Assembly (NCBI GenBank): GCA_013141055.1
Contig: JABFRS010000002.1
Span: 930,001-994,000 of the forward strand
From: Cyclobacteriaceae bacterium
Lineage (GTDB): Bacteria > Bacteroidota > Bacteroidia > Cytophagales > Cyclobacteriaceae
Length of the DNA stretch: 64,000 bases
Reading direction: 5' to 3'
The notes below the pieces were generated by a model. It was not told the DNA's origin. It ran no database searches and worked only from the letters and a program-made list of their open reading frames with translations. Each line of letters starts with the position of its first letter. Position 1 is the stretch's first letter. The position numbers and the translations under genes are program-made. Below, in pieces: positions 25,498 through 60,361 of the stretch.

Positions 25498-25502
25498 ACC
25501 GC

Positions 25503-26843: not shown

Positions 26844-26936
26844 CGATTTTTTCCTCAAAGTACATGTCAATAATGGAGGAAAAGTGGAGTTGCAGGAAGA
26901 TAAAGGCCCGTCGATCGGAATCTTTCTTTAAAAGAA

Positions 26937-26965
26937 ACGGAGGTGACTTTATTTTCCACCTCCGT
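26937..26965 (-). terminator. Terminator after the HEPN fusion gene
   Basis: A 9 bp perfect stem ACGGAGGTG/CACCTCCGT with an 11-base loop lies between the HEPN fusion gene (stop at 27084) and tolC. Read on the minus strand it is followed by TTTCTTTT. It should end the GIN/HEPN transcript before the efflux operon begins. Confidence 0.65.
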
Positions 26966-27083
26966 ATATGCAAAACCATCGGTTTCCAATAGACTTCCAG
27001 CACGATCCCGAAGGCAGAGTCCGCCACATTGGGTTTCCGAAAAACTTGCCTTATAAATTTACCAATAGTGCGGGAATATTCCG

Positions 27084-28271: not shown

Positions 28272-28283
28272 GAGGAATCAGGA

Positions 28284-28577
28284 TTAGCGTTCATACATAT
28301 TCTTGCTACAGTGTTTGCCTTCATCTTCGGCGACGTCGAGGACATGAAAGAACATTTCCAATCCGTCGATTAATTCAGCGTAATAGTTTGGCACACCCAC
28401 GTCGCAATCTTTAGAGATTTCCAGAGTGGCATCCCGTAAGCTTCGGCTGAAATGTTTGGGAGATACAAAACTCAGGAAATGAGCAAACTTCTCCTGCAAT
28501 TCAATACTTAGGATAGGTTCTGCTTTCCGTGGCTTAGTCTTCCTGCACTTCGCCTTCTTCTTCGGTTTCTTTGCCAT
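28284..28577 (-). CDS. Small hypothetical protein with basic leader
   Basis: The 97-residue product opens with a Lys/Arg-rich leader (KKPKKKAKCRKTKPRKAEP) and continues as an amphipathic helical domain (LQEKFAHFLSFVSPKHFSRSL, YYAELIDGLEMFFHVLDVAEDE). No family is recognised. Its start overlaps the end of the GIN-domain gene by 44 bp and its stop is 12 bp from the HEPN fusion, so it is clearly in the same operon. The basic leader could bind nucleic acid; that is a guess. Confidence 0.65.
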   Translation of the reverse strand: MAKKPKKKAKCRKTKPRKAEPILSIELQEKFAHFLSFVSPKHFSRSLRDATLEISKDCDVGVPNYYAELIDGLEMFFHVLDVAEDEGKHCSKNMYER

Positions 28578-42851: not shown

Positions 42852-43177
42852 GGATGATTTGCCTTTGTGAGTTGAGTGAAAATCTTGCGTGTCCTTCCAG
42901 TGACGGCGTCCGGGATACTCCGGATGGCCAACTTCTTTAGCAGACCGTATTGCCCGTATTTATCACTCATCCGGTAGACGGTCATGAACAAAATAGTTCC
43001 GAGTATCCCGACGAGGGCCAAGCAGAAGAACATATTGACACCGGCGATGTAGAGTATTGCGAACAGGATCAACAATCCTATCAAGCCCACCGCCAAGTAT
43101 GCGATGTATTGTGCCTTGAGTCCTTTAAACTCGATTGGCTTGTTGATTCCCTTGTTGATCTTATAAATGCTGCTCAT
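42848..43177 (-). CDS. traF: TraF, VirB3-like membrane protein (DUF4133)
   Basis: The ATG at 43177 gives 109 residues and lies 10 bp after the previous stop; the longer frame overlaps that gene. It begins SSIYKINKGINKPIEFKGLK, a TraF signature, followed by two membrane helices (YIAYLAVGLIGLLILFAILY and FFCLALVGILGTILFMTVY) and a basic tail. It is an inner-membrane partner of TraG. An ATGA overlap couples it to traG. Confidence 0.92.
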   Translation of the reverse strand: MSSIYKINKGINKPIEFKGLKAQYIAYLAVGLIGLLILFAILYIAGVNMFFCLALVGILGTILFMTVYRMSDKYGQYGLLKKLAIRSIPDAVTGRTRKIFTQLTKANHP

Positions 43178-43187
43178 GTACGTGAGA

Positions 43188-43646
43188 TTATATTCCTCGT
43201 CCGGCCTTTCGTTTCTGTTCGTTTGGGCTCTTCGCATCATTTCTTGAGAATGCCTCGGGTGTGGGATTTTGACTAACCTGATCTGTCTTTTGATTCACAT
43301 CCCCACGCACTTTGTCTTCATCGTCGGTTTGCCTGATGCCGAAATACTTCTCTCGAAGATTCTTCACTAACTGGTCGGCGATGTATTGCGTGTCGAGTTC
43401 TATTGCAGGCGGCATTTTGACGAGCACCAGGTCTTCTCGTTGCGACATTTCTCCCCAACTTCCCTTGAATGCGTTCTTGGTCTTAGGGTCATACATGACC
43501 TCGGTATGGTCGCCGCTGTCGTGCACGTCATAAAAGGAGATTGTATTTTTGTCGTTATCGACTTGACGGAACTCAAGTTTCTCCAGATCGACGTGGAAGT
43601 CGGTATCATGGATTCTAAGTATCGGGAGTATTCTAGACTCTTCCAT
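43188..43646 (-). CDS. Unknown soluble protein between traE and traF
   Basis: The frame opens at 43817, overlapping traE. The ATG at 43646, ten bases after the traE stop, gives 152 residues (EESRILPILRIHDTDFHVDL). Residues 1-100 form a beta-rich domain (ILRIHDTDFHVDLEKLEFRQ, TISFYDVHDS, MYDPKTKNAFKG) and the last 50 are disordered, Gln/Asn/Lys-rich. No motif is recognised. Its fixed place in a tight transfer operon suggests a transfer-related job. Confidence 0.7.
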   Translation of the reverse strand: MEESRILPILRIHDTDFHVDLEKLEFRQVDNDKNTISFYDVHDSGDHTEVMYDPKTKNAFKGSWGEMSQREDLVLVKMPPAIELDTQYIADQLVKNLREKYFGIRQTDDEDKVRGDVNQKTDQVSQNPTPEAFSRNDAKSPNEQKRKAGRGI

Positions 43647-43656
43647 AATCGAAAAG

Positions 43657-43989
43657 TTAGATTCCGAAGAATGAGCGAAGCACGGTAGCAACAATGACAA
43701 GAAATACACAGCTTCCGAACCAAGCAGCAGCCACCTTCCCTGTATCCGGATCACCACTATTCCATTTTTGATAAACCTTGACGGCCCCGACAAGACCGAG
43801 AATTGCACCGATGGCATACATAAGGCTTGTGCCGGTGGTGAAATAACTTCTCACTCTCATTGTTGCCTCATTGATTCCGGCATTGCCGTCCTGGGCATGA
43901 GCTGGCAAGAGAAGAGTCAAGGCGTAGATAACCACCGCCAGTCCAAAAGCCCTGCCTTTTCTGATTGTTAAATGAATCCTCTGTTTCAT
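43657..43989 (-). CDS. traE: TraE, VirB2-like pilin candidate (DUF4134)
   Basis: The ATG at 43989 gives 110 residues with a signal peptide (RAFGLAVVIYALTLLLPAHAQ); earlier Met codons would overlap the preceding gene. The mature part has two membrane helices (SLMYAIGAILGLVGAVKVYQ and AAWFGSCVFLVIVATVLRSF) separated by KWNSGDPDTGK, the DUF4134/TraE pattern. It is the likely pilin or pilin-like subunit. It is the second gene of the tra operon. Confidence 0.92.
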   Translation of the reverse strand: MKQRIHLTIRKGRAFGLAVVIYALTLLLPAHAQDGNAGINEATMRVRSYFTTGTSLMYAIGAILGLVGAVKVYQKWNSGDPDTGKVAAAWFGSCVFLVIVATVLRSFFGI

Positions 43990-44014
43990 AGCATTTGTAT
44001 TTATTTGATTGATT

Positions 44015-44608
44015 TTAGTTTGTTGTAAAATCTTTGTTGTCATCAAGCCACCATGATTTGATCTCATCCTCTTCGAATTGAGTGTTGGGGTTACCGAATA
44101 ATCCATTTTGAATGTAGACGTTGATTTCATCCTGAAAACTCGATTCAATGAGTTGTGGGAACTTTGAGAATAGCGGTTTGAAAGCAAGCATTGCTTCCTC
44201 CTTGTCGTAGGGAGGGAAGTTTTCGATTATTGAATTTGCCTGTTTGAGAAGTTCGGCGACAGCTTTCGCGAGTGTATCCTCTGGAGCGTCGGCGGTAGAA
44301 ACCGTAATCGGTTCCTCAGGTTCGTTTTTCTTCACCATCTCTTTAACTTCCACATCCTCTGCATCGACACTTTTTTCATGTGGAACATTTACTGTGGTCA
44401 TGCATTTGACTTTCCCCATGAGATCGTTGGATTCATTTGAATCACTTTGATCGGTAGCGAGAATCTCGCTGATAGCGTTTGACTTCTTTTGTTTGAAAAT
44501 AAATTTGATCTCTTCGCTGTAGAGTAACAGCACGGTGATTGCATAATAACTTCCAACGATCAGGCTGATCGTCGTAAAGAACTCCTGCCAGGAAATTGAT
44601 TGTAACAT
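44015..44608 (-). CDS. Unknown single-span membrane protein, first gene of the tra operon
   Basis: The 197-residue protein has one N-terminal transmembrane segment (FFTTISLIVGSYYAITVLLL), a disordered acidic middle (about 45-105) and a helical C-terminal domain (LAKAVAELLKQANSIIENFP, EIKSWWLDD). Such genes precede traE in Bacteroidetes elements without known function. It starts 25 bases upstream of the traE ATG and heads the transcript reading to 32643. The candidate operator at 44641-44692 lies just upstream. Confidence 0.75.
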   Translation of the reverse strand: MLQSISWQEFFTTISLIVGSYYAITVLLLYSEEIKFIFKQKKSNAISEILATDQSDSNESNDLMGKVKCMTTVNVPHEKSVDAEDVEVKEMVKKNEPEEPITVSTADAPEDTLAKAVAELLKQANSIIENFPPYDKEEAMLAFKPLFSKFPQLIESSFQDEINVYIQNGLFGNPNTQFEEDEIKSWWLDDNKDFTTN

Positions 44609-44869: not shown

Positions 44870-45808
44870 CTAGCCTATGCGATACCAGACATTTCCTTCG
44901 AAATATTCGGGTTCCAAGTCAATTTCGTACTCCCTCTCGTTTTCAAGAACGCTGAACAAATCAACCCTTGACGCATATTTCAAATAGATGACAAGAGGAA
45001 ACTGGCTTGAATCAATTAAGGGCCTTCGTGCGTACCGAGTTGAATTGACCTTTAGATGAATGTCAAATACCTCATCATCCAAATTTAGAAATGAAATGAA
45101 TACTTCCCCACGAAGATCCCTTAGTAGTACATAAGAATCCCGCCTTAACTCTAGAGTAGCAACGACGAAGTCGGACAGGGCTACGACGTCATTGTATCGT
45201 TTAATCACTGACGACTTATAAAACAATTCTTTGGCTGCAGTCACGCGCGGCACGGCCTTACGAGTTGATGTAAAGAGCTCATTAACTCGTTCCCGAATGT
45301 CTTCTTGTATTAGGCGATTAAAGATTGGTTTAGTTAATATTTCCTGATCCCATCCTATATTAAGGGTGTATCCGATAACCTGATACTTTTCATGATTAAA
45401 ACGAAAAAGATGTATCGGTTTTCTTTCGATGAGTGCTTGTAAATGTTGTGATGTCAGTTTTCCCTGAAAAATCCCATTGACATATTTCAGAAATTGTTCT
45501 TTTTTCGTTATCAAATTCGTGCAAAGAACAAATTCATACGAGCCACTGTCTCGGCAACGAATAAAATAAAGTATCCGCTTCGCTATTCGTTTCCTTTCGA
45601 GGTCCTCTAGTTTTGACGGAGATTTACAACAATACTCGAACTCTTCAGATGATGAAGTGAAGACCGCGAACAGAGATTCCTCTTTCGCCGAAATAGCAAA
45701 AGCTCTTGCTTTTTCAAGTTGCTCATGCTCCGAAATGGCAAAGCCATTTTCAAAAAAGAAGAGCTCTGAATCTTGAAATATTTTGTTTTCTCTTACTAGA
45801 ATTTCCAT
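44870..45808 (-). CDS. Unknown protein at the end of the seven-gene RM/helicase operon
   Basis: The 312-residue product begins immediately after the res stop (TGA then ATG at 45808). It has no transmembrane segment. Residues 5-30 read ENKIFQDSELFFFENGFAIS; a middle region contains IGYTLNIGWDQEILTKPIFN and a later part VVALSDFVVATLELRRDSYV and ISFLNLDDEVFDIHLK. No nuclease or ATP motif is seen. Possible roles include a specificity, sensor or immunity protein for the operon; none is supported by motif. Confidence 0.7.
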   Translation of the reverse strand: MEILVRENKIFQDSELFFFENGFAISEHEQLEKARAFAISAKEESLFAVFTSSSEEFEYCCKSPSKLEDLERKRIAKRILYFIRCRDSGSYEFVLCTNLITKKEQFLKYVNGIFQGKLTSQHLQALIERKPIHLFRFNHEKYQVIGYTLNIGWDQEILTKPIFNRLIQEDIRERVNELFTSTRKAVPRVTAAKELFYKSSVIKRYNDVVALSDFVVATLELRRDSYVLLRDLRGEVFISFLNLDDEVFDIHLKVNSTRYARRPLIDSSQFPLVIYLKYASRVDLFSVLENEREYEIDLEPEYFEGNVWYRIG

Positions 45809-48730
45809 TCATAAATTCACCGAGGAAGTCACAACATCAAAATCCACACCAAGTGCATCGAAGTGCTTTCTGCCACACTTAACTTTATCAGCCTCCGAGT
45901 TTCTGAGCTTTTCAAAATCTTTAGTAGCTTTTGTTTCCCTCACCAAATAGATCTTCACGTCTTCTTCCTTAACAATAGCCCAATCAGGATTGTAAAATCC
46001 TACTGGCGTTTCTACCTGAAACCATCTAGGCAGCTTAACAAATAGCTTAATGTCATCACGTTTGTCCAAGTCGTCCGCAAATTTCCTTTCCACCTCGCTA
46101 TCATAAACTACAGCATCATAAATAGAGTTCTTTACTTCCAACCGATTATGTAGATAACTTAAGATTTCAACGTCCTCGAATTGTGTCATGCGCCATTCAT
46201 CGCCTGCAATCTTATTGTATTGAACGCCATCGATCATTACCTTATGTAGTTCAATCTTGATTATGCCCGAAACTGCGTCCATGAATTTTTGTGGGTTGAT
46301 GGCAAATTCTTCCAAGCGTCCACTGCCTTTCAGGATTTCGACTATGGTCTTTCTTGTCAACTCCGTCTCACGTTGAATATAGGCGATAATGTCTGGTAAA
46401 CCACCGAGGTGTGAAAGCTTAAGATAATGTACCCTGGTTTCTTCGGAGGTGATTCCTTTTATGTCAATATCCAATTGTGCTTCTCGATATGAGACACTCA
46501 TTGCCTCAACCTTTTCCATCCTTCTGATTGACTTGATGCTGTTAGAAACAAGTTCCTCTGTTGAGTATTTGACCTCGTAGGTTGTTTTGTGCTTAATCTT
46601 ATTCCAAAGGTTTTCAAACTCCGAGTCAAGGAATACTTGTTTGTTAATCTTAAGCCGTTTTGGTTCTTCGTCCCTCTTGATGTGTCTGTTTAGTTGATAG
46701 CTTTGTAGCAGGTCAATGATTTGAGGCTCCAATTCCTTCAAATCATCACTTAGACCTAGAGAAAACCCGTCTTGTTGGGGAGTGAAAGTCTTAGTGATCT
46801 TCCCACTAGCATCGATAAATCCTTTTGCTGCCAATTCAGTCCATACTTTTTCTGAACCGATCCGCCCCAGACCTATTTCAACGCCAGCTTCAACTTTCTG
46901 AATCAGATTTGAGAATCCAATTTTAGGGATTTTACCAAATGTCACGCCGCAATCATCTTCATACTCCGTTTGCAACGCTCGGGCAAAATCCTCGTAACTC
47001 TCATTAGCAATTATCAAAAGCTTGTTGATATTGTCATCGAACACTCGTTCTCCATTTTGGTTTACAGGAAGACGCAGACCACGACCTATTTCCTGACGTT
47101 TTTTCATTGCAGACCGTGATTCGTTCAATGTACAGATTTGAAAAACATTTGGGTTGTCCCACCCCTCGCGCAATGCCGAATGTGAGAAAATGAATTTTAA
47201 AGGCTCTTCATTTGAAAGAAGCTGTTCCTTGTTCTGCATGATCTTGGCGTATGTATCATCGTCATCCTTAGTTGAGCCGCTGGTATCCTTAAAAGCCCCT
47301 TTCTTATCTTGACTGAAATAACCATCGTGAATTCTGTCAACGCTGAATTCGTCCAGTTCCTTGTATTGAGGTTGCTTAATTAATTCCTGGTAATGCTTTT
47401 CGAATTGTTGCGCAAATTTGCCCTTAACCGGTCGTCCTTCCGCATCGTACTCACGATAGTTGGAAACTCGATCGATAAAAAAAAGAGATAGCACCTTGAT
47501 GCCCTTGCCCTTTAATTGCAACTCTTTGTCCAAGTGCCTTTTGATAGTGTTTCGAATCTGAACCTCCATGAGGTCATTTCTAACTCCGCCACGTTCCTGG
47601 CCAAGCATTAGCCTGCCAAGCGTAAAGTCTATGTATTCGTTGCCGGGTTCCGCACTTATATCTGTTATTTGAAATCCATTTCGATAGTTTTCGCGCTCGT
47701 TTGACAATACGTACAGATCTGCATTCTGCTTAACCCAGATCTTCTTTTCTCTTGGGCCTTTCGGGGTATTCTCATGAATTGCGATCCGAGCCTGGATTCC
47801 CTTCTTATTGTCGACGGCTAGTAATTTTATATAGGCATCATTCTGTGCATTCACACCCTCAACAGAAGCGACTACAATTTGTTTTACCAAACGAAGTTCG
47901 TACGCTTTAATAGGGTCAAGTTTGTGAACAAGGTTGTAAACATTCTTATGAGTAGCTGAGTAACGAAAAATGCAAAGTGGGTTCAGCGACTTAATAGCCT
48001 CCTGCGCCTTTGGCGTGCCGTCAACACTTTGAGGCTCATCGATTATTACAAAAGGCCTGGCGGCTTGAACAAATTCAATCGGTTTTCTGCCTGAGAGTTT
48101 ATCACTTTCTTTGAAAATAACATTACTTTTTTTGCTATCATCATCATCTGAAAAATCCTTACGGAATGCATCAATATTAATTATCATGATTTGCAACTGA
48201 TTGCTGGTTGCAAACTGCCGCAGCCTATTGGCCTTACGTGAATCATAAACAAAGTACTCAAACTCAATATTATTATAGAGAGCCTTGAAATGGTCTTTGG
48301 TAATCTCAATGTTTTTTAACGCACCTTCCCGAATGGCCACACTTGGCACCACTACAATAAATTTCTTGAAACCGTACTTGTGACTTAACTCGAAAATGGT
48401 CCGCAGGTAAACATACGTCTTGCCGGTACCGGTCTCCATTTCAACGGAAAAATTCAACGCATTTTCTTTAAACTCGTCTTCATTAGTATGATCAAGGTCG
48501 TTCTTTTCTTGAGTCCTTTGAAGGTTCTTTAGTATAGATTCATCGGACAAGAGCAGATTGTTCCCGGTTCCCAATTCCGTTTGAAGTAAACTCTTTTGCC
48601 CGAAATTGTCATAGGCTGTTAGCTCGATAGAGAAATCGCCCTGACTTAGGGGTTGTCCATCAAATAAGTCAACAATGCTGCTGATGGCAGTAAGTTGGTA
48701 GGGTTGGGAGCTATCAAACTTTAATTTCAT
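45809..48730 (-). CDS. res: Type III restriction endonuclease subunit (Res)
   Basis: The 973-residue protein has a superfamily II helicase core: Walker A VEMETGTGKTYVYLRTIF at about residue 95, box II VIIDEPQ near 228, motif III FRYSATHKN near 255, and ending in QEIGRGLRLPVNQNG near 560. A C-terminal nuclease reads NPDWAIVKEED then LVRETKATKDFEKLRN (PD, ETK) near 912-935. This is the arrangement of type III Res. It overlaps mod by ATGA and precedes the 312-residue gene without spacing. Confidence 0.95.
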   Translation of the reverse strand: MKLKFDSSQPYQLTAISSIVDLFDGQPLSQGDFSIELTAYDNFGQKSLLQTELGTGNNLLLSDESILKNLQRTQEKNDLDHTNEDEFKENALNFSVEMETGTGKTYVYLRTIFELSHKYGFKKFIVVVPSVAIREGALKNIEITKDHFKALYNNIEFEYFVYDSRKANRLRQFATSNQLQIMIINIDAFRKDFSDDDDSKKSNVIFKESDKLSGRKPIEFVQAARPFVIIDEPQSVDGTPKAQEAIKSLNPLCIFRYSATHKNVYNLVHKLDPIKAYELRLVKQIVVASVEGVNAQNDAYIKLLAVDNKKGIQARIAIHENTPKGPREKKIWVKQNADLYVLSNERENYRNGFQITDISAEPGNEYIDFTLGRLMLGQERGGVRNDLMEVQIRNTIKRHLDKELQLKGKGIKVLSLFFIDRVSNYREYDAEGRPVKGKFAQQFEKHYQELIKQPQYKELDEFSVDRIHDGYFSQDKKGAFKDTSGSTKDDDDTYAKIMQNKEQLLSNEEPLKFIFSHSALREGWDNPNVFQICTLNESRSAMKKRQEIGRGLRLPVNQNGERVFDDNINKLLIIANESYEDFARALQTEYEDDCGVTFGKIPKIGFSNLIQKVEAGVEIGLGRIGSEKVWTELAAKGFIDASGKITKTFTPQQDGFSLGLSDDLKELEPQIIDLLQSYQLNRHIKRDEEPKRLKINKQVFLDSEFENLWNKIKHKTTYEVKYSTEELVSNSIKSIRRMEKVEAMSVSYREAQLDIDIKGITSEETRVHYLKLSHLGGLPDIIAYIQRETELTRKTIVEILKGSGRLEEFAINPQKFMDAVSGIIKIELHKVMIDGVQYNKIAGDEWRMTQFEDVEILSYLHNRLEVKNSIYDAVVYDSEVERKFADDLDKRDDIKLFVKLPRWFQVETPVGFYNPDWAIVKEEDVKIYLVRETKATKDFEKLRNSEADKVKCGRKHFDALGVDFDVVTSSVNL

Positions 48731-50619
48731 ACAGTTTGAAACTTGATTACTCCTTTGCTCTTCATTATTTGAACTGCATTTGTTTTCAATTGGTCATTAT
48801 TTTGAAAACCTTGATCGAGACAGATTACTCGTGACGGCCTCTTTTCCGCAATTCCTTTAATTAGTTCCAGAGTTAATTCCTTTTCTAAGCAAACAAACAG
48901 TTCTCCTTCAGCGACACTAAATACAGATTTTCCTGCTATGGCTTCCTTGCTTACTAAAGTCGTCAATTCGAATCCGCTTTTTAGCAGTAGCTCAAATAGG
49001 ATAGCCTCTTGGCTAGCGTCCCGTGAAATGTGGCTGATATTTAGCTCTAGCTGCTTTATTATAGATTCAGCAGATTTTTCAGTATCTGTTTTCCACAAAT
49101 TAAAATTTGATTGATTGAGCTTAAACACCTTAAAACCTAAATCTATATCCTTCAAGTCCGTACCAAATAGTGTCTTCTTCGCCTCAGTTTGTTTTTCGTT
49201 TTGTTCCTTACGAACATGTGCAATAACACGCCTGATTCTCTCTTTGCTGACATCAGATATTGTCTTGAAGTCCTTATTACTCGATTGACCTGTTTCAATT
49301 GGCTCGGGTAATTGAACACAAATAAATCTCCTACGCTGTTGATTTTCGAGATTGAGTTTGATTACCGCGTGTGCGATTGTACTTGATCCAGCGAAAAAAT
49401 CCAATACGATATCATCTTCCGCACTGCCTTGTTCCACAAGTACCTTTAGCAAAGAGACAGGTTTCGGAAATGAAAATATGTTTTCCCCCAAAATATCTCT
49501 CACTTCCCTTGTACCATTGAGAGTATGACCAACTAAATCTTCATCCAATAGGGATGAAAAGTTTGTTTGGGTACTAGATAGTTCGTTCAAAAATATTTTT
49601 TCCCTTGGTCTACCGTCAATTTTTTTAGGAAAAATGATCCTCTTATCCTTGATCTTTTGATCCATGGCTTCCTTTGAATACCTCCAGCCCGAAGACTCAG
49701 GGCAAGAGTACATAATTCCCGTTTCAGGGTCAGTTAGGTCATAATGTAAGTTAGGGCGTTGAGCTCGCGTTGCCAGTCCCAACATATTGTTGCTCATCCA
49801 GGGTCCTCGTGTGTCATTGTCTGGATTTGAGTACTTGTTTTTGTCAATTTCCTTTCCTTTTAGCCTTGAGATGCTTTTACAGTATATCACAATGTACTCA
49901 TGATCAATTGAAACCCCTGATTGAGCTCTGCTATCTACATTTTGTCTGCTTTTCCAGATTAGAGCAGTAACAAAACACTCTTCCCCAAAAATTTCGTTAC
50001 AAATCATTCGTAAATTATTGACCTCACCATCATTAATGGAAATGAAAACCAGGCCATCTTCTTTCATTAGGTTCTTTGATAGAAATAAACGGGGATACAT
50101 CATATTCATCCATTTGCTATGAAAACGCCCGTCTGTTTCAGCATTAGTGTTAAACTTTCTTCCTTCGCCGTCCACCTGTCCGGTGTATTCGAGGTAAGTC
50201 TGAAGGTTTTCAGAATAGTTGTCTGGATAAATAAAATCATTTCCAGTATTGTATGGTGGATCAATGTAAATCATCTTGATCTTGCCGAGATAGCTTTTTT
50301 GCAAAAGCTTCAATACTTCAAGATTGTCGCCTTCAATGAAAAGGTTTTGAGTAGTATCAAAGTCAATACTCTCTTCACGTGCCGGAGCTAAAGTCGCAAT
50401 ACTAGGCTGTTGGATAGTTTTAAAACAATCCGCTTTACCTGGCCAGTTCATACCAAAGCGTTCCTTTCCTACGTCAACTTGTTCACCAAGAGTAAGGCGT
50501 AACCTGTCCCAATCGACCTTGCCTCCTTCTGTGAATACTTCGGGGAATAACTCCTTTAACCTTTGTTGTTGCGCTTCGGGAATGCTCATTGGTGCTAATG
50601 TCAATTTCTCTATTTCCAT
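48727..50619 (-). CDS. mod: Type III DNA methyltransferase subunit (Mod)
   Basis: The 630-residue protein has motif IV MIYIDPPYNTGNDFIYPDNY near residue 117 and motif I IVLDFFAGSSTIAHAV near 403, the order of beta-class N6-adenine methyltransferases used by type III systems. The N-terminus (TEGGKVDWDRLRLTLGEQVD) and C-terminus look like the normal Mod flanks. It is translationally coupled to res (ATGA). It should both modify DNA and give Res its recognition site; the site cannot be read from the sequence. Confidence 0.96.
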   Translation of the reverse strand: MEIEKLTLAPMSIPEAQQQRLKELFPEVFTEGGKVDWDRLRLTLGEQVDVGKERFGMNWPGKADCFKTIQQPSIATLAPAREESIDFDTTQNLFIEGDNLEVLKLLQKSYLGKIKMIYIDPPYNTGNDFIYPDNYSENLQTYLEYTGQVDGEGRKFNTNAETDGRFHSKWMNMMYPRLFLSKNLMKEDGLVFISINDGEVNNLRMICNEIFGEECFVTALIWKSRQNVDSRAQSGVSIDHEYIVIYCKSISRLKGKEIDKNKYSNPDNDTRGPWMSNNMLGLATRAQRPNLHYDLTDPETGIMYSCPESSGWRYSKEAMDQKIKDKRIIFPKKIDGRPREKIFLNELSSTQTNFSSLLDEDLVGHTLNGTREVRDILGENIFSFPKPVSLLKVLVEQGSAEDDIVLDFFAGSSTIAHAVIKLNLENQQRRRFICVQLPEPIETGQSSNKDFKTISDVSKERIRRVIAHVRKEQNEKQTEAKKTLFGTDLKDIDLGFKVFKLNQSNFNLWKTDTEKSAESIIKQLELNISHISRDASQEAILFELLLKSGFELTTLVSKEAIAGKSVFSVAEGELFVCLEKELTLELIKGIAEKRPSRVICLDQGFQNNDQLKTNAVQIMKSKGVIKFQTV

Positions 50620-50631
50620 GTGGTCGATAAA

Positions 50632-52965
50632 TTATGGCTCAATTAACGGAAAGAGTCGGACTGAACCACTCTTGGTCTCCCAAAACGAACCGGTTTTGTT
50701 TCTGTCAGGCAGGTTGCCGTCAACTGGGCAAATCAGCAATTCTGCCAGCTGAATCGTGGCTTTTGCAAATTCTTCTATATCGCTGTCGCTTACTAGCGCA
50801 CCATCGTAGGTGAAGTGAGCTCCTACTTGATTGCGAACCGCCTTCAACGTCTTTATATTTTCTATGACTGGTTTCAAGGCTATTTCAGCCGTGTGATTTG
50901 TTGTGCTGTACTTCCCATCAGCCAGAGGTTCCATCTGATGCACTTTCAGGATCTTAAGGAGATTGTTCGAAAGTGCGTCCAATAAGTCATTTAATGTGTA
51001 GTCCGCACCTGGCTTTCGTTTTAGTCTGCACTGAAAGTTGAACGTCAAAAAATCCAGAATGGCCTCAAGAAATCTACCGGTCGTTCCAGCGAGGTTTTCC
51101 CTGTGGAAATTCTCAGGAGTCACTAAATAATGTCGAAGCTCTTCAAGGACTAACTGAGGTTTGGCCTGAGTAATACCTCGCTCTTTTGTCCATCCTCTTA
51201 GTTCAACAAATTGAACGTCCGCACTTGGGGCTCTATGATTTCGATATCGTTCTCTCCATGGACGGTAATGAGTAGAAATTATTACATGAGCAAAGTGTTT
51301 CGCCTCATCATGAATTAGGTCAATGATTCTATCGAGGTGTTTTTCATCTACGGACATCACAACGTCATCTAAAACAAGAACCAGATCCTTATTACTCTCC
51401 TTCTTAGCAAGTGCAATGAAGATGCAAATGCCTAATGTATCTAGATGTGATTCACTGTAGACCGATTGGGGGGTCACATCTGAGACTGAATGAAAGTCAG
51501 CTGTCAGACTGAGCGAACTTTGATATGTTCGATTGAGGAAGAGCTTCACATTGCCTAAACCTTCGTTTGGATGTATCTTTCTATACATCGATTCTACCTC
51601 ACCAGAAATAGACCTTAGCTCACTGTCAATGAATTCCTTTCTCGTCGTTTCCACTATCACCAAAGCAGGCTTCGCTTGATTTACTAGGGTTTCAAGTTGA
51701 TTACACTTTTTTGTAAGTTGTAGTACGCTATTGTGGTTGGATTTAATTGAATTGCTAAAGTTGAGCGATTTACTAGTGGCATCATTGTCTGTGATCAATT
51801 TCTGAATCTCAGCCTTGGCTTGGTCAAATACACCAACGAACGCCTGGTAGTTGTCTCGCGTTGAATTTGCCGACGCGATTGACTTTAACAGATCATTGAA
51901 ATTGTAAGTTGTCAATTTGGACGCCTCGTCCTTAAATTTTATGACGCCTCTATTGAAAGGTTCAATTTGACCCTCAAGTCTCTGATGTAGTTTGTCCTTT
52001 TCTGTCTTTGCAGTCTTGAGAGCCTGAGTCAGCTTGTTTAGATCCTCCATCTTGGTTATGTGATCTGAAACATGCTGAAGAAGACTTTGTCGGTCGTTTT
52101 CTTTTCCACACACTGGGCATTTTTCGACAGAAGTCTTTCCCTGAAGGAATTTTCTTGTTTCAGTCAACACCGTCAGTAGATCTGCCTCATACTGAGTGTT
52201 TTCTTGCTGATACTTCTTCAGATTCTCGTCAGCGGCCTCAAAGGCCTCTTTAGCAGATTTGTACTTCGTATTTTCCTGCTGGATACTCTCGACGATAGTC
52301 TGAAATGACTGCCATATATGCAGAACATTCTTGTTCTGTTCGTAGTCCTTCTGAAGTTGTGCATTATCCTTTGCGATTTCCGCAGCGATCCACGTGTCAA
52401 TGTCACCTAAGGGTTTTCCGCCTTTGTTCCAAATATCCTGCAAGGTCTGATTTGCATCCGACAGGCTCTTGACATTTCGTTCCAAGTCCTCCTCAAGGGT
52501 ATTTATTAACTTCTTAAGTTCAGACTCAGATTTCTGAATGTTCGAGACATCAATGAAGTAGGACAAGACTTTATACCTCTCCGACGGTGTGTCTTCAATA
52601 AACGACGTCACTTGCGCCCTTCTCAGAGCTTTAAGTTTGGGTTGACCCTTATTGGGGTCCTTGGTAAGCTTGTTAGACGAGGAAGATAAGGTCGTTTGAA
52701 AGACTTGTGTGTCGGTGGTGAGCTTGATCAGCAAATCTGAGTTCTTTGAACCCAAAGATTTCAAGTACGAAAAATCGATGTTCGACTTATCGTCCAAAGA
52801 ACCAAATCCATCAGTACACAAGCATACGAGGGCATCGGCAATTGTGGACTTTCCGTTCCCATTCTCTGCGTATAGCAAGGTAATGTTCTTGCCCTGGCTA
52901 AATCGAAGGGTGAAGGGCTTAGTAGCACCTCGGAAGTACTCAATATGTAGTTCACTCAGTTTCAA
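50632..52965 (-). CDS. SMC/RecF-like ATPase with zinc hook
   Basis: The gene starts at TTG (52965) because an in-frame stop lies 14 codons upstream and the motif IEYFRGATKPF begins at once; it overlaps the tiny gene by 14 bp. Of 777 residues, Walker A is LYAENGNGKSTIADAL (32-47), a coiled coil follows, CPVCGKENDRQ lies near 285 (zinc hook), and Walker B with D-loop LVLVLDDVVMSVDEKH near 528. The last 200 residues are an extra domain (KPGADYTLNDLLDALSNNLL). Such ATPases bind DNA ends or tether subunits. Here it lies between SNF2-like and Mod genes. Confidence 0.85.
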   Translation of the reverse strand: MKLSELHIEYFRGATKPFTLRFSQGKNITLLYAENGNGKSTIADALVCLCTDGFGSLDDKSNIDFSYLKSLGSKNSDLLIKLTTDTQVFQTTLSSSSNKLTKDPNKGQPKLKALRRAQVTSFIEDTPSERYKVLSYFIDVSNIQKSESELKKLINTLEEDLERNVKSLSDANQTLQDIWNKGGKPLGDIDTWIAAEIAKDNAQLQKDYEQNKNVLHIWQSFQTIVESIQQENTKYKSAKEAFEAADENLKKYQQENTQYEADLLTVLTETRKFLQGKTSVEKCPVCGKENDRQSLLQHVSDHITKMEDLNKLTQALKTAKTEKDKLHQRLEGQIEPFNRGVIKFKDEASKLTTYNFNDLLKSIASANSTRDNYQAFVGVFDQAKAEIQKLITDNDATSKSLNFSNSIKSNHNSVLQLTKKCNQLETLVNQAKPALVIVETTRKEFIDSELRSISGEVESMYRKIHPNEGLGNVKLFLNRTYQSSLSLTADFHSVSDVTPQSVYSESHLDTLGICIFIALAKKESNKDLVLVLDDVVMSVDEKHLDRIIDLIHDEAKHFAHVIISTHYRPWRERYRNHRAPSADVQFVELRGWTKERGITQAKPQLVLEELRHYLVTPENFHRENLAGTTGRFLEAILDFLTFNFQCRLKRKPGADYTLNDLLDALSNNLLKILKVHQMEPLADGKYSTTNHTAEIALKPVIENIKTLKAVRNQVGAHFTYDGALVSDSDIEEFAKATIQLAELLICPVDGNLPDRNKTGSFWETKSGSVRLFPLIEP

Positions 52966-53152
52966 TGGTATCGTTGGCCGCTTTCTGTTTTTCCAATTCT
53001 CTTATTTTATGTTCTAAAAAAACCTTCCAGTCATTTTCTCGGACTGATCCATTTGATATCTTACTTTCAACAACCGAATCAGATTCACAGACAAGCTTTC
53101 GTTCCTTAAGCTTCGTCACTATTTCTGTTGCAACCTTTGCGTTATTGTCCAT
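52952..53152 (-). CDS. Tiny charged helical protein in the RM/helicase operon
   Basis: The 66-residue product (NNAKVATEIVTKLKERKLVC ... WKVFLEHKIRELEKQKAAND) is helical and charged. It starts 6 bp after the SNF2-like gene and overlaps the ATPase gene by 14 bp, so position supports it being real. No family is recognised. It could be a linker subunit between helicase and ATPase. Confidence 0.65.
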   Translation of the reverse strand: MDNNAKVATEIVTKLKERKLVCESDSVVESKISNGSVRENDWKVFLEHKIRELEKQKAANDTIETE

Positions 53153-53158
53153 AAGTCA

Positions 53159-56035
53159 TTAGGTGATGATCCACTTAAAAGTGAAAAGGTGATCCTCCGC
53201 CAGTCTTTGATCTAAGCGCTTTTCGATAGCGCTAATTAGCTCATCTTTATTTTTTTCAATCGCCTTGGCCGCACTATCATAGTCGTGCCATGCCTCATCT
53301 CTTGTGCTTTCAAGCTTTTTTCTTTCCTTCTCAAGTTTAAGTTTATCGGGCAGATTTGGGGCCAGGCGACCTTGCTTTTTTATCTCCTTGATTTGATCGT
53401 CCAATTCTTTCAATGTCACCTTTAATGAATTCCTGCGATCTTCACCCCACTTATCAAGTTTTTCCAATTCCAGATCGAAATAGTTGATGTTTCGTGTTCC
53501 AACATCCTCTAAAGCACTTTGTTGCTGCCGCTTTAGTTCAGACTCTAGCTTTGCAAGCACATCTTCGGGAAGAGTTGTTTCTTTGGAATGGCTTTCGACA
53601 TTAATCGAGAACAACCGAGAACATTGATCTTTATCAAGGAGTAGGCCATCCTGTGTGACACCTGCTAGCAATATAAAGTCTTCTGTTTCAAATGTTGAAA
53701 CAGACAAAGATTTAGCTATAAGCCACCCAAACTTGCCAATTAAGTCGTCTAGTATGCTAATTTTTTTTCCTGAGTTAGAGTAGCTAAGTTCCAAAACTGC
53801 AGGCTCTGGCCTGAAGGTCTTGCATCGTTCTATGATGATTTGAGCTAACGGGTGGTTGATGCGATAGATGTTAGCATCTTCGATGTTCTTTCCGATACGA
53901 TATGGTCCAGAGTGAATTTGGGTGTCAGGAAAAGGATTTGTCTTGAGAGTGAAAGAGTGCTCATCCTTTGAATAGACGGCATTCTCACCTAGACTATATT
54001 TTGTTATACTCCAAAGCCAGCTTTCATACTTCGATAGGTACGCTTTACTTTCTTCCAGGTTAATTCTGAGTTTCTCGTGAACCTCTTCATCGAAATTCTC
54101 CAATAATTGCTGCCTCGTACGACTGAACTCATCGGAAATACTTGCCTCCAGATCAGCTTGCAGTTGATTAAAGGCTATTTCGATTTGCCCAGTGGTTCGA
54201 CATTCTTGATAGATACTTGCAATCCTTTTCTCAAAGTCTACTCCGTTTTCAATACTACCGAGTACTTCATCGCTAGCGCCAAAAACTCCATCAAAGATCT
54301 TGAACTTATTTTTCAGGAGTTCATACACCCGTTGATCTGCTGCGTTCGCCTTATTTAAAAAGTTTACAACCACAACGTCGAATTTCTGACCATATCGATG
54401 GCACCTGCCGATCCGTTGTTCAATTCTCTGCGGATTCCAAGGTAAATCGTAGTTAATGATCAGTGAGCAGAATTGAAGATTAATACCTTCGGCTGCGGCC
54501 TCAGTTGCAATCATGATTGTTGCATCATCACGAAAATAGTCTACCAGGGCTGCACGCATGTCTGCGGACCTAGATCCAGTAATCCTATCTGTATTTTTGT
54601 GTTTCTCAGTCCATTGCTGATATATGTCTTTGGATTTAAGGTCGGTATTGGTACCATTGAACAGAACAACTTTTCCTTCGTACCCACGTCCTTCAAGGAT
54701 TTCTCTCAAGTATTCCTGAGTTCGCTTGCTTTCAGTGAAAATAATTGCCTTCCTCAGGGCACCTAGGCGGTGTAATTCTTTAAATCCATTCTCAAGCGCT
54801 GTAAACAGTTTTTCTCCCTTTGAGTTTTTTCGTATTGACTTGGCCAGGCCCTCAAATTCCTTTAGTGACTTGATTTCGGTTTTAATATTTTCGAAATCGA
54901 GTCTCGTTAATTCTCCATTGGCGCTTATTTCCTCAGGCTCTTCTTCCCATTCATCTTTTAATTCATCGTATGTTTCAAAATTGTCTTCTAGTTCTGATTC
55001 AAGTTTTGAGTTCGAGTTTTCTGCTATAATGCCTTGAAGTTTTGCGGCTAAACCTTCTAGTGTTCCTGATATTGCGTAGGTTGAAGATGCTAATAGTCTT
55101 CGGAGTATCAGGGTCATTAATTTCCTTTGACTCGCTGGTAAAGCATACAGATTGTCAGCTTGAAGATATTCCGAGACGAGGTCGTAAAGCCTTTGCTCCT
55201 CCTGAGTTGGATAAAACTCTTCAACAAGGGCAATTCGATTTGTGTAGCTAATGTATTCTAAGACTTGCCTTCTCAATGTTCGTTTGCAGACGGGCTTAAG
55301 TCGTTCTTTTAATTCGGAAAATAGCTGGTCGTCAGTTCCATTTGCTATTCGACTGTATTGAGACCTAAAACTCTTTTGATCCCCGAAAGTAAAATCGTCG
55401 ATTATGCTCACGAGGCCGTAAAGCTCCATTAAGCTATTTTGAAGAGGAGTTGCTGTAAGCAATATTTTAGGTATGTCTTCCAGGGATGCTTTGATTGATT
55501 TAGCAATCTTATTACTTGGCTTATATACATTTCTTAGCCGATGTGCTTCGTCAATTACGGCCAAGTCCCACTTGACACTCTTTACGTATGACTCTTTTGA
55601 CCTTGCGAACTGGTATGAACAAAGAACTATTTCGCCTTGAATGAATGGATTCATGTTTCCATTCTTAACCGCATTATTGAAGGATTTTGCCTCCAGAATA
55701 TGGCATGGAAGGAAGAACTTATCGAACAGTTCTTGAGACCACTGTTTCCTGAGGTTAGCTGGAGTAATGATTAAGATTCTACGTTTTCGTTCAGCCCATT
55801 TCTGAGCAATAACTAGTCCGGCCTCGATAGTCTTTCCTAGTCCAACTTCGTCGGCGAGGATAGCTCCTTTAGAGAGGGGAGAATGGAATGCGAACAGTGC
55901 GGCATCGACTTGATGTGGATTGAGGTCAACCTGCGCATCAACTAGGGTTGACGCCAGCTTTTCTACGCTGTCGGAAGAGCTACGTTTCGTCAGTTCATAA
56001 GCGTAATATTTCGCATGATATGGGGTAATCACCAT
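53159..56035 (-). CDS. SNF2/HepA-type DNA translocase
   Basis: I use the ATG at 56035 (958 residues); a TTG at 56059 would add eight residues. Motif I ILADEVGLGKTIEAG near residue 62, motif Ia LIITPANLRKQW, box II AVIDEAHRLRNVY near 157, motif III ILLTATPLQN, then the C-terminal helicase part with ATEAAAEGINLQFCSLIINY and ERIGRC-like QRIEQRIGRCHRYGQ near 515-548. The last 200 residues are charged coiled coil. It is a HepA/RapA-like translocase similar in type to DrmD. It is the largest gene of the operon after the XRE regulator. Confidence 0.9.
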   Translation of the reverse strand: MVITPYHAKYYAYELTKRSSSDSVEKLASTLVDAQVDLNPHQVDAALFAFHSPLSKGAILADEVGLGKTIEAGLVIAQKWAERKRRILIITPANLRKQWSQELFDKFFLPCHILEAKSFNNAVKNGNMNPFIQGEIVLCSYQFARSKESYVKSVKWDLAVIDEAHRLRNVYKPSNKIAKSIKASLEDIPKILLTATPLQNSLMELYGLVSIIDDFTFGDQKSFRSQYSRIANGTDDQLFSELKERLKPVCKRTLRRQVLEYISYTNRIALVEEFYPTQEEQRLYDLVSEYLQADNLYALPASQRKLMTLILRRLLASSTYAISGTLEGLAAKLQGIIAENSNSKLESELEDNFETYDELKDEWEEEPEEISANGELTRLDFENIKTEIKSLKEFEGLAKSIRKNSKGEKLFTALENGFKELHRLGALRKAIIFTESKRTQEYLREILEGRGYEGKVVLFNGTNTDLKSKDIYQQWTEKHKNTDRITGSRSADMRAALVDYFRDDATIMIATEAAAEGINLQFCSLIINYDLPWNPQRIEQRIGRCHRYGQKFDVVVVNFLNKANAADQRVYELLKNKFKIFDGVFGASDEVLGSIENGVDFEKRIASIYQECRTTGQIEIAFNQLQADLEASISDEFSRTRQQLLENFDEEVHEKLRINLEESKAYLSKYESWLWSITKYSLGENAVYSKDEHSFTLKTNPFPDTQIHSGPYRIGKNIEDANIYRINHPLAQIIIERCKTFRPEPAVLELSYSNSGKKISILDDLIGKFGWLIAKSLSVSTFETEDFILLAGVTQDGLLLDKDQCSRLFSINVESHSKETTLPEDVLAKLESELKRQQQSALEDVGTRNINYFDLELEKLDKWGEDRRNSLKVTLKELDDQIKEIKKQGRLAPNLPDKLKLEKERKKLESTRDEAWHDYDSAAKAIEKNKDELISAIEKRLDQRLAEDHLFTFKWIIT

Positions 56036-56082
56036 TAAATCCAACTTTGAATAAGACAATAAGCACTTGTACCGTGATTCTT

Positions 56083-56343
56083 CTACTTTCTAGATTCTTT
56101 ATTTAGCGACGCAAAGAACTCCTCGACGGTCATCTTATGGATAGCCAAGAGTTTAACCATGCTTTTAAGGGTCAGGTTGGTTTTCCCTTTCTCAACGCGC
56201 CAATATTGCCCTCTAGGGATGTCATGGTCATAAGCAAAATCTTCGTGGCTGGTGTAGCCCTTATCCTTACGGAGTTGTGTGAGCTTTTGACCAATCCTTT
56301 CCTGTAACTGTTGTACGGCTTCCTCTTCTTTCACGGAAGCCAA
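56083..56343 (-). CDS. XRE-family regulator heading the RM/helicase operon
   Basis: The 86-residue protein is a Cro/C1-type HTH (GQKLTQLRKDKGYTSHEDFA, IPRGQYWRVEKGKTNLTLKS, VKLLAIHKMTVEEFFASLNK). The first codon is TTG (56343); GTG at 56334 is an alternative. It precedes the SNF2-like gene by 47 bp on the same strand and probably represses the operon, delaying restriction after transfer into a new host. An inverted repeat at 56368-56400 is a candidate operator. Confidence 0.88.
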   Translation of the reverse strand: MASVKEEEAVQQLQERIGQKLTQLRKDKGYTSHEDFAYDHDIPRGQYWRVEKGKTNLTLKSMVKLLAIHKMTVEEFFASLNKESRK

Positions 56344-56602: not shown

Positions 56603-57598
56603 TCAGAATAGGCTGGACGATTCAAAGAACTTGATTTCACGGGCGCGATACTTGAAAAGATTCTCATGGATTCCCCGGATATGTCGTTGAATTTGGGTTT
56701 CAGTGAGACCTTTAAGGTAGATCCCTATGGCGAGCTTCCTTTTGGTGCCGTTCAGGTGCGTTATCAGGTGGTCGTCACATTTTGAGAATGAGAATCCGTA
56801 AATGACGAGGCCATTGGACGATGCCTTGAACGCATCACGACAAAATGATAGGTACTGATTCTTCGAAATCGTTTCTGCTTTCAGGGCGGCTCTCCCTTCA
56901 GAAACAAAAATTGGCAAATAGCCGATATGGACTTGAAGTCTAATCAGTTCAAGGAGCTCCTCATTCCTGGCCCCGCGTCTAATCTTGATTATCCGGTCGT
57001 CCTCTTTACGGAGGAAAAGTGCGCCGTGGAGATAGTATATGTTCTTAAAGCCGGTCAATAGCTTATCAGCAAATTCCAGGCGACCGTTTTCTGCCCTGAA
57101 GAAGTCCTGATACTTCTTAACGACACTATTGCGCTTTGCCCGGTCAAGGGTAGCAAGCATGATATGATAAAGGAAAGTGTCGTAGTTGGTGGTGTAGATG
57201 TCCTCGAACCAGTCGAGCTTTTGCGACAATTGAAAAATTGTATTCGGATCAATCTGGGAGTAGGCTGGGTGTAGATCTTTAATTGCGCCCAACAGTCCAA
57301 GTCTCAGTTTCTTCAGGGCCGATTCAAATTTGAGGGTGTCGAGATCAAATGCTTTATTGACTTCCGAACCGTCGACAAGTTTCCCCTGTATCCCTTCGAA
57401 ATTGGTCATGTTGAATTTCTTAAATATGAGCTGATCGGCAGCGTCGAGGTATGTCAGAAACCTGTCAAACAGGGATCGATAATTCAGAGCTGTGTTAATA
57501 TTAATAGAAAAGCCGTTGCCGAGGAAAATATCTGCCCCCAGGAAGGAATCCTGAATCTCGCTCCAATGATAAATCTTGATGTCCCCAATAGTTCTCAT
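56603..57598 (-). CDS. SIR2-like protein (DUF4917 type) in the mobilization operon
   Basis: The 331-residue product has the SIR2-like order: FLGNGFSININTA near residue 25 (GNG and Asn for NAD binding), DIYTTNYDTFLYH near 133, YYLHGALFL near 190 and LVIYGFSFSKCDDHLITHL near 270. DUF4917 proteins carry this fold. SIR2-like proteins in phage defence often destroy NAD; activity here is inference. It starts 5 bp after the rteC stop, as last gene of the mobA-mobB-mobC-rteC run. The XRE operon follows after 259 bp. Confidence 0.8.
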   Translation of the reverse strand: MRTIGDIKIYHWSEIQDSFLGADIFLGNGFSININTALNYRSLFDRFLTYLDAADQLIFKKFNMTNFEGIQGKLVDGSEVNKAFDLDTLKFESALKKLRLGLLGAIKDLHPAYSQIDPNTIFQLSQKLDWFEDIYTTNYDTFLYHIMLATLDRAKRNSVVKKYQDFFRAENGRLEFADKLLTGFKNIYYLHGALFLRKEDDRIIKIRRGARNEELLELIRLQVHIGYLPIFVSEGRAALKAETISKNQYLSFCRDAFKASSNGLVIYGFSFSKCDDHLITHLNGTKRKLAIGIYLKGLTETQIQRHIRGIHENLFKYRAREIKFFESSSLF

Positions 57599-57603
57599 GA
57601 TCT

Positions 57604-58413
57604 CTATAGTTTCTCATCTAACCGTTGCTCCAATTTTTCCTTCAACAGATCGATGAACGTTGTCCGGCCACCCTTTCGAAGGCCGATCTCCTGAAAGTGT
57701 CTGTAAAAATTGCCGAGACTCACGTTAAAGAGGTTTTCAAACAGATTAGCGATTTGCTTGATCTCCACCTTTCCATCATTGAATGCCTCCACTTTATGTA
57801 AGGCATAGATCAACTCCACTAGATCAGCTTTCTTTGCAGTCCATTTCAGGGGTGAAATACCGGGCTCGTTAACCAACCCTTTGATAAGTTTTTCCACACG
57901 ACCTCTAATCAGATGGCTCGCGAGTATTCGCGCTAAGGTATTATCGTAGCCGGTCGAGAATCTGGTGTCTATGTCAGGTGCCTTAAATATTGCTTTACCC
58001 CGAGTGAAGTACTGCTCGTCGAAATGCGTCGATCCTGAGACACAATAGATGTAAAATTCCTGATGAGCCTTTACAAATTCTTGCTGTTTACTAAGCTGAT
58101 CGAAGTAATGGAACTTGAGTCGCTCATGATCTACAGGCTCGCTAAGCTTTAGGTCAATTAGACCATCGTAGTAATAGTACTGACTCAGAAATCCAGGCTT
58201 CGTCTCTTTGAAGAATGCAACTTCCTCGATCGCGCTCTGAAACTCGTATTTGTAAACAAATTCCTTCATGTCCGAAAGTACTTCCTGAATAGCGACGAGG
58301 CTTTTGCTTGACCGTTGAATAAAGTCTGCGTTTTCCCCGGCAATATTTTCAATCTTTGAATTCAACTTGTCTTGGAGTTGAGACGAATATGCATTTATGT
58401 CTATGGTTTTCAT
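57604..58413 (-). CDS. rteC: RteC-like regulator of element excision
   Basis: The 269-residue protein has the RteC C-terminal signature LKWTAKKADLVELIYALHKV near 193, KVEIKQIANLFENLFNVSLG, and FYRHFQEIGLRKGGRTTFID. In CTnDOT, RteC activates excision genes. It lies 7 bp after the coupling protein gene and 5 bp before the SIR2-like gene. The N-terminal 150 residues are helical and acidic. Its probable target is the excision/HTH region or tra operon; the shared TTCGnnCGAA sites are candidates, not shown. Confidence 0.9.
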   Translation of the reverse strand: MKTIDINAYSSQLQDKLNSKIENIAGENADFIQRSSKSLVAIQEVLSDMKEFVYKYEFQSAIEEVAFFKETKPGFLSQYYYYDGLIDLKLSEPVDHERLKFHYFDQLSKQQEFVKAHQEFYIYCVSGSTHFDEQYFTRGKAIFKAPDIDTRFSTGYDNTLARILASHLIRGRVEKLIKGLVNEPGISPLKWTAKKADLVELIYALHKVEAFNDGKVEIKQIANLFENLFNVSLGNFYRHFQEIGLRKGGRTTFIDLLKEKLEQRLDEKL

Positions 58414-58420
58414 GGCCTTG

Positions 58421-60352: not shown

Positions 60353-60361
60353 GTGACTAGA

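What the first reader, a model, noticed from the sequence alone, without database searches (positions are those of the whole stretch)
44870..56343. Seven-gene operon joining type III RM to an SNF2 translocase and a zinc-hook SMC-like ATPase
XRE regulator, SNF2/HepA-type helicase, 66-residue protein, SMC-like ATPase, Mod, Res and a 312-residue unknown are all on one strand with overlaps or gaps of at most 47 bp. Type III systems normally need only Mod and Res. The extra translocase and ATPase suggest a new defence architecture or a large remodelling complex on DNA. The set lacks the DISARM genes drmA/B/C and the BREX genes pglZ/brxC. I cannot rule out that it is a known but unremembered subtype.
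Basis: partly seen in the sequence, partly recalled or inferred. Interest (0 to 1): 0.8.

Follow-up and report, generated by a model that had tools for sequence, protein, structure and literature searches.

The report
Restriction operon with swappable accessory module
This is a type III DNA restriction system with an extra helicase, a combination already reported in 2021, which here also carries an exchangeable two-gene module that looks like a DNA-break sensor joined to a possible RNA-cutting domain, so it may act as a second, self-sacrificing line of defence against viruses.

Summary
In detail: seven minus-strand genes at 44870-56343. Five of them (SNF2, small protein, zinc-hook ABC ATPase, Mod, Res) keep their order in relatives. 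The 312-residue gene is an orphan and not part of the set.

Two corrections. First, SNF2-Mod-Res is not new. A 2021 paper reports a helicase-like gene 5' of mod in Eco86II (E. coli NCTC86) and more than 500 genomes; I located the NCTC86 locus, and its helicase matches the window's full-length (46%). Second, the ATPase is not a fixed part. With its small partner it fills a slot between SNF2 and Mod, where other loci carry other genes (DUF3800, HigB/ImmA-like, Bro-N, Abi, AIPR/VapC, SIR2/HerA and more) or nothing.

The ATPase ends in a separate domain with RN[QE]VG[AC]H in 15 of 15 aligned homologues. That suits a HEPN ribonuclease, but profile support is weak and no fold could be made. In two loci 97% identical in DNA, this domain is the part that differs.

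Best reading: an Eco86II-like type III system on a conjugative element, carrying a RloC/Lamassu-like backup effector. New variant of a known kind.

The parts
56083..56343 (-). P0001, 86-aa XRE-type HTH protein, possible controller of the operon
   Evidence: Pfam HTH_3 0.0095 (below cut-off); PADLOC 'Control_protein' 2.1e-07. Position 5' of SNF2 matches short HTH genes annotated there on many plasmids; not the MADS1 model
53159..56059 (-). P0002, SNF2/RapA-like helicase of the DrmD-like family; likely true start at 56035
   Evidence: DISARM DrmD_b 704.6 bits, under its cut-off of 950
52952..53152 (-). P0003, 66-aa partner protein, always just 5' of the ABC gene in the 13 non-plasmid loci examined
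   Evidence: no family match
50632..52965 (-). P0004, zinc-hook ABC ATPase with separate C-terminal domain; TTG start, 14-bp overlap with P0003
52843..52869 (-). Walker A of P0004 (residues 33-41)
52108..52119 (-). zinc-hook CPVC of P0004 (residues 283-286)
   Evidence: CP[VIL]C in 15 of 15 aligned homologues
50635..51180 (-). C-terminal domain of P0004 (residues 596-777), putative HEPN-type effector
   Evidence: alignment A3; hhalign; exchanged between L016 and L018
50815..50835 (-). RNQVGAH motif (residues 711-717), HEPN-like Rx4-6H
   Evidence: RN[QE]VG[AC]H in 15 of 15; pattern written after seeing the alignment
48727..50619 (-). P0005, type III Mod methyltransferase (beta class, DPPY)
45809..48730 (-). 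P0006, type III Res helicase-endonuclease, EcoP15I-like
44870..45808 (-). P0007, 312-aa orphan; neighbour, not part of the conserved set
   Evidence: no family, PDB or plasmid match; in 296 phylum genomes only itself and two fragments with stops at E 4e-4 and 8e-4
56603..61591 (-). upstream flank: DUF4917 protein, RteC, YWFCY/T4SS coupling protein, MobA/VirD2-type relaxase (conjugative element)
40374..44608 (-). downstream flank: TraG P-loop, DUF4133, DUF4134 and two unassigned ORFs (conjugation genes)

Best explanation
The operon is a type III restriction-modification system of the three-gene, helicase-bearing layout (SNF2-Mod-Res, as in Eco86II), carried by a conjugative element of a Cyclobacteriaceae bacterium. 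Mod marks self DNA and Res cuts unmarked DNA. In the slot between SNF2 and Mod it carries a two-gene backup module: a small partner (P0003) and a Rad50-like zinc-hook ABC ATPase (P0004) that holds a C-terminal effector, probably a HEPN-type ribonuclease, silent. When a phage blocks or outruns restriction, or when DNA ends pile up, the ATPase changes state and releases the effector, which stops growth of the infected cell by cutting RNA. Shown: gene content, order, intact motifs, linkage in relatives, exchange of the module for other genes, and exchange of the C-terminal domain alone. Inferred: the trigger, the silencing, the RNase activity and its target, and any role of SNF2 in controlling the cargo.
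For: Core order kept in relatives with different flanks. SNF2 next to Mod in 45 of 48 SNF2 loci, the other 3 cut by contig ends; Res in 40 of 48, the other 8 cut (two Mod and one Res placements by annotation). The slot holds toxin- or abortive-infection-like genes in other loci: DUF3800 + PDC-M04B, Bro-N, HigB-like + HTH/ImmA scored as PD-Lambda-2, Abi, AIPR/VapC, SIR2 + HerA. P0004: ABC motifs, CPVC hook and RN[QE]VG[AC]H in 15 of 15. L016 and L018 are 97.0% identical in DNA over 7,854 bp through SNF2, the small gene and the ABC part; P0004 is 98% identical to residue 540 and 38% at 596-700, where L016 is instead 74% like L017. A domain exchanged alone behaves like an effector or its recognition surface. 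Fit to the PrrC/RloC logic: passages of PMC2610378 and PMC3710099.
Against: No Pfam HEPN model matches the C-terminal domain in 8 fragments at E up to 10 and no PDB chain at E up to 10. hhalign to Abi_C is weak (score 23.8, probability 6.6%; 0 of 100 column shuffles reach it, but 2 of 100 do when the motif is kept, and it falls to 11.6 when the motif is masked). It fails against DUF4145, a HEPN family (14.3; 17 of 100 shuffles reach it), and against RloC-like C-termini (10.6; 44 of 50). Abi_C is not named in the HEPN paper; that it is HEPN is recalled, though it scores 41.4 against DUF4145 here. P0004 also occurs without the restriction genes (2 of 2 Hymenobacter plasmid loci read), so silencing by Res or Mod is not required everywhere.
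Confidence: 0.45

Rival explanations
1. P0003-P0004 is a free-standing Lamassu/ABC-type defence unit that merely sits inside the operon and does not talk to the restriction system.
For: Best PADLOC hit of P0004 is LmuB (5.1e-18, partial). The pair occurs beside other genes on Hymenobacter plasmids and, in L010, downstream of an integrase and an HNH gene with no SNF2 in the 8.9 kb upstream.
Against: In 12 of 13 non-plasmid loci it follows SNF2 directly and in 11 of 11 that run on far enough Mod lies downstream; the same slot is used by other toxin-like genes.
Confidence: 0.25
2. One reading: SNF2 and the zinc-hook ATPase are working parts of one large restriction or DNA-remodelling complex.
For: Conserved order and tight spacing; DISARM DrmD-like helicase family.
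Against: Other loci with the same SNF2 family lack the ATPase or have other genes in its place; PMC8259958 reports that the extra helicase was not needed for methylation and was not seen in a partly purified, cutting Eco86II preparation.
Confidence: 0.15
3. The C-terminal domain of P0004 is not a nuclease but a docking or target-recognition domain that senses phage or partner proteins, and its swapping reflects an arms race over recognition.
For: It is the exchanged part between L016 and L018; four distant homologues carry an extra C..C/C.C pair at the end, as in a zinc ribbon; HEPN support is weak.
Against: The most constant stretch of the domain is the polar RN..G.H motif rather than a variable surface.
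Confidence: 0.3

Closest known systems
Eco86II / BspHIV three-gene type III systems (PMC8259958)
   Same: SNF2-type SF2 helicase 5' of mod and res; NCTC86 helicase 45.9% identical to P0002 over 979 columns
   Different: No gene between SNF2 and Mod at NCTC86; Eco86II Mod is about 1,040 aa and makes m4C, the window's is 630 aa with unknown base
RloC / PrrC anticodon nucleases
   Same: ABC ATPase with C-terminal nuclease domain; RloC also has a CXXC hook; both can be linked to restriction loci, RloC in a few cases to type III (passages of PMC2610378)
   Different: The Arg-X3-Glu-X36-52-His triad is not conserved, the C-termini do not align, and there is a small partner gene
Lamassu / ABC-3C
   Same: Rad50-like hook ATPase with a small protein encoded just before it; effector variable (passages of PMC10586767)
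   Different: No LmuA; the putative effector is fused to the ATPase; P0003 matches no LmuC model
DISARM class 1 (DrmD)
   Same: SNF2 family (704.6 bits to DrmD_b)
   Different: Below the model's cut-off of 950; no drmA, drmB or drmC seen
MADS
   Same: Some SNF2 loci elsewhere begin with a short HTH that passes the MAD1 model (81.0 and 82.0 bits, cut-off 80) or carry AAA + DUF4276 genes
   Different: P0001 does not match MAD1; the eight-gene MADS set is recalled from the abstract of Maestri 2024, which is not held

Membership tests
Type III restriction-modification | beta-class Mod with DPPY and SAM motif | tested here: met
   Pfam 9.2e-33, PADLOC MTase_III 2.5e-201, motifs
Type III restriction-modification | Res with SF2 motor and PD-(D/E)XK nuclease | tested here: met
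Type III restriction-modification | one-strand methylation of an asymmetric site and two-site cleavage | not testable with these tools
   needs methylome and cleavage assays
Eco86II-like three-gene type III | SNF2/SF2 helicase-like gene 5' of mod, same family as NCTC86 | tested here: met
   L132, 45.9% identity over 979 columns; assigned by strain and layout, not by the REBASE sequence
RloC | Rad50-like ABC with CXXC hook | tested here: met
RloC | C-terminal Arg-X3-Glu-X36-52-His triad | tested here: not met
   a match after residue 560 in 9 of 15 rows and, in 8 of those, before the C-terminal domain; no shared position
RloC | AAA_13 (PF13166) membership | tested here: not met
   no hit in P0004; the G009 orthologue 29.9 bits, cut-off 36
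HEPN superfamily | conserved Rx4-6H with polar residue after R | tested here: met
   RN[QE]VG[AC]H 15 of 15; rule from PMC3710099
HEPN superfamily | four-helix HEPN fold or profile match | tested here: inconclusive
   structure tool off
Lamassu | LmuB-like ATPase | tested here: inconclusive
   62.7 bits, residues 2-263 of P0004 only
Lamassu | LmuA effector gene | tested here: not met
   no LmuA hit among the seven proteins
DISARM | drmA, drmB and drmC present | tested here: not met
   not among the seven (P0002 hits one DrmA model weakly as a helicase) nor, by Pfam, among ten flanking ORFs
BREX | pglZ and brxC present | tested here: not met
   not among the seven nor, by Pfam, the ten flanking ORFs

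The most novel reading that the evidence does not exclude
The SNF2-Mod-Res set is a loading dock: the unexplained third-gene helicase is not part of cutting but the keeper that monitors the restriction complex and holds whatever toxin sits in the neighbouring slots, and in P0004 the toxin domain itself is exchanged between alleles. That would give a function to the helicase left unexplained in 2021 and a general rule for how type III systems carry abortive modules. Against it, 16 of the 43 loci on the tree keep SNF2 with nothing in the first slot.
Probability: 0.15. Interest if true: 0.75.

Novelty: new variant of a known kind. Interest (0 to 1): 0.5.

Why it matters
It turns a loose observation, that restriction loci collect toxin-like genes, into a defined arrangement with two fixed slots in an identified three-gene type III family that also occurs in laboratory-tractable E. 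coli (185 of 5,426 complete genomes match the cargo-free NCTC86-type block). The role of the extra helicase, stated as unknown in 2021, becomes testable by swapping cargo under a constant helicase, Mod and Res. The exchange of one domain at the end of an otherwise identical ATPase marks where the conflict with phages may act.

Tried and rejected
DISARM, BREX, MADS, RloC and Lamassu membership were each tested and not accepted (see membership rows). The 312-aa gene as a member: rejected. A Bacteroidetes-type promoter pattern: 2 matches in the window against 2.74 expected, neither at the operon start. DUF4145 and RloC C-termini as relatives of the C-terminal domain: rejected. A search for the C-terminal domain in other proteins found only the three known full-length genes in 296 genomes, so no bridging family was found. 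Phages: one partial, unannotated record holds the SNF2 at E 1e-60.

Rows dropped or limited: L005 and L019, weak hits, were left out of the 15-row P0004 alignment and show no such motif by a simple pattern; L013 and L015 are the same contigs as L009 and L008 (contig lengths); L012 is a near-copy of L009. The C-terminal alignment A3 holds 13 rows (L012 and L014 left out). I fetched 20 of 31 SNF2 places, read 12 of 50 plasmid records, 5 of 251 E. coli genomes and one, so cargo frequencies are not estimates. Mod and Res queries include proteins from the loci themselves. The tree leaves out L012, L014, L017, L036 and L126; L058's cargo label rests on ORF lengths only; several long branches are flagged.
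Full report
What is there. The window is G000:C2:930001-994000 of a two-contig, 4.65-Mb genome. They lie in one direction between conjugation genes: TraG, DUF4133 and DUF4134 on one side, DUF4917, RteC, a coupling protein and a relaxase on the other. The operon is therefore cargo of a conjugative element; the likeness to CTnDOT is recalled. Its G+C is 0.410 against 0.430 for the window.

The proteins. P0002 is an SNF2 helicase closest to the DISARM DrmD models (PADLOC 701.8 bits; NCBIfam DrmD_b 704.6, cut-off 950) and, in the PDB, to RapA. P0005 and P0006 are a type III Mod and Res with their motifs. P0004 has an ABC head split by a coiled region with a CPVC hook; its Walker B reads DD where many ABC ATPases have DE (the comparison is recalled). 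P0003 has no family match, but a profile of it finds its counterpart before the ABC gene in each of the 13 non-plasmid loci; L054, not in the profile, scores 7e-10, and two Hymenobacter plasmid loci score 3.8e-5 and 0.07. P0007 has no relative of weight.

Linkage. P0004 relatives were found in 9 of 10 reported GTDB loci (the tenth, L019, is a short weak match), one viral-collection contig, two further Bacteroidota genomes and 10 plasmid records, 5 of them with at least 80% cover. In the 13 distinct non-plasmid loci, SNF2 is directly upstream in 12 (not in L010), and Mod is downstream in all 11 whose contig runs on far enough. The two plasmid loci that I read have no SNF2, Mod or Res annotated nearby.

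The helicase, Mod and Res set is wider than the ATPase. At E 1e-100 the SNF2 is in 29 of 395 Bacteroidota genomes; the ATPase at E 1e-20 in 3 of 395. Of 48 SNF2 loci examined, 45 have Mod beside it and 40 have Res; every missing case is cut by a contig end (with L087 and L126 placed by annotation; L126 has the order Mod-Res-SNF2). They span Bacteroidota, Pseudomonadota, Deinococcota and Planctomycetota.

It is already in print. PMC8259958 (abstract, passages and part of the Results read) reports that two m4C type III systems, BspHIV and Eco86II, have an extra SF2 helicase-like gene 5' of mod, seen in more than 500 genomes, not needed for methylation and not detected in a partly purified Eco86II. 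I found the NCTC86 locus in three records and read one: SNF2, Mod, Res with nothing between SNF2 and Mod. Its SNF2 is 45.9% identical to P0002 over 979 columns. The paper states that NCTC86 has one putative type III system; I did not compare with the REBASE entry.

The slots. Between SNF2 and Mod, different loci carry: the P0003-P0004 pair; DUF3800 + PDC-M04B (L053, L066); Bro-N (L059; L060 by DNA match); HigB-like + HTH/ImmA, scored as PD-Lambda-2_B (L057, L061; L056 by DNA match); Abi (L082, L121); AIPR and VapC (L084); SIR2 + HerA (L089); AAA + S8 peptidase (L123, L128, L129); AAA + DUF4276 (L124); or nothing (16 of the 43 on the tree). Between Mod and Res: HEC-01-like AAA + DUF4276 (L053; AAA + DUF4276 also in L088), YhcG (L055), Fic (L063), GmrSD (L089), DUF262 (L086), Schlafen-type AlbA_2 and a ParA-like ATPase (L011), PDC-M59A (L064, L065). 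On an SNF2 tree of 43 rows, L053 with DUF3800 cargo falls with the window and L008 (support 100/97); the ABC label needs 4 changes, at least 2 forced by well-supported branches; all 12 labels need 14 changes (11 is the least possible) against 25.2 in shuffles. L059 and L061 are 89-90% identical in DNA on both sides of a wholly different slot gene. Eight loci, seven with the ABC pair and one with DUF3800, share the same 16-bp overlap between SNF2 and the slot gene, as far as ORF starts can be trusted.

The C-terminal domain. L016 (a MAG) and L018 (Sphingobacterium allocomposti DSM 18850) are 97.0% identical over 7,854 bp from upstream of SNF2 into P0004. Within P0004 they are 98% identical up to residue 540, 73% at 541-595 and 38% at 596-700. 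L016 is 56% like L017 over residues 1-300 but 84% and 74% over those last two blocks. So the end of the protein is exchanged as a unit; Mod shows the same in its middle, as expected for a recognition domain. The domain carries RN[QE]VG[AC]H in 15 of 15 rows, which fits the Rx4-6H rule of PMC3710099 (passages). Profile tests are mixed: Abi_C 23.8 (0 of 100 shuffles, 2 of 100 with the motif kept, 11.6 with it masked), DUF4145 14.3 (17 of 100), RloC-like 10.6 (44 of 50); Pfam and PDB found nothing. I hold HEPN as about even odds, no more.

How it most likely works. Restriction by Mod and Res is established for the family (PMC8259958). The rest is by analogy: PrrC is silenced by its type I enzyme and freed by a phage anti-restriction peptide, RloC by DNA breaks with the zinc hook as a switch (passages of PMC2610378, PMC3710099, PMC12707154). 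P0004 has the same parts in a different make: ABC head, hook, separate end domain. PMC3506569 (passages) already says that type I and III loci hold toxin-like genes, AIPR among them.

What is new. Nine paper searches brought up no description of fixed cargo slots in the SNF2-Mod-Res family or of the P0003-P0004 pair; bioRxiv and most subscription journals are not held, so this is no proof of absence. Verdict: a new variant of a known kind.

Noticed in passing
window 56603-57598: A DUF4917 protein (Pfam 3.8e-43) lies just upstream of the operon in the same direction; no PDB match. A link of DUF4917 to SIR2-like folds is recalled, not tested.
   Followed up: partly
L016:11075-11592 and L018:11785-12315: The only unalignable DNA between two otherwise 97% identical stretches is the 3' end of P0004.
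   Followed up: yes
L086:22196-24918: Next to the Res of a Rhizobium plasmid system, on the other strand, lies another small ORF (74 aa) + hook-type AAA (832 aa) pair; AAA_13 1.6e-07, below cut-off.
   Followed up: partly
L088:12801-13004 and L121:14808-15008: Short HTH genes 5' of SNF2 pass the NCBIfam MAD1 model by 1-2 bits and also match the excisionase model, so the MAD1 name there may rest on the HTH alone.
   Followed up: partly
L011:13505-16423 and L129:18367-21236: Res is broken in these two relatives (two pieces in L011; annotated frameshift in L129) while SNF2 and the slot genes stay open.
   Followed up: no
L006:11778-19490: On a Hymenobacter plasmid the small + ABC pair sits with an unknown 642-aa protein, a metallo-beta-lactamase-fold protein and a ThiF/JAB protein, a different gene set.
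   Followed up: partly
L082:1-22307: The SNF2-Abi-Mod-Res set also lies on a conjugative Salmonella plasmid near a predicted floR gene; 32 of 50 plasmid records with the SNF2 are typed conjugative.
   Followed up: no
window 18035-28577: A run of large minus-strand ORFs, one of 1,047 aa, was not identified.
   Followed up: no
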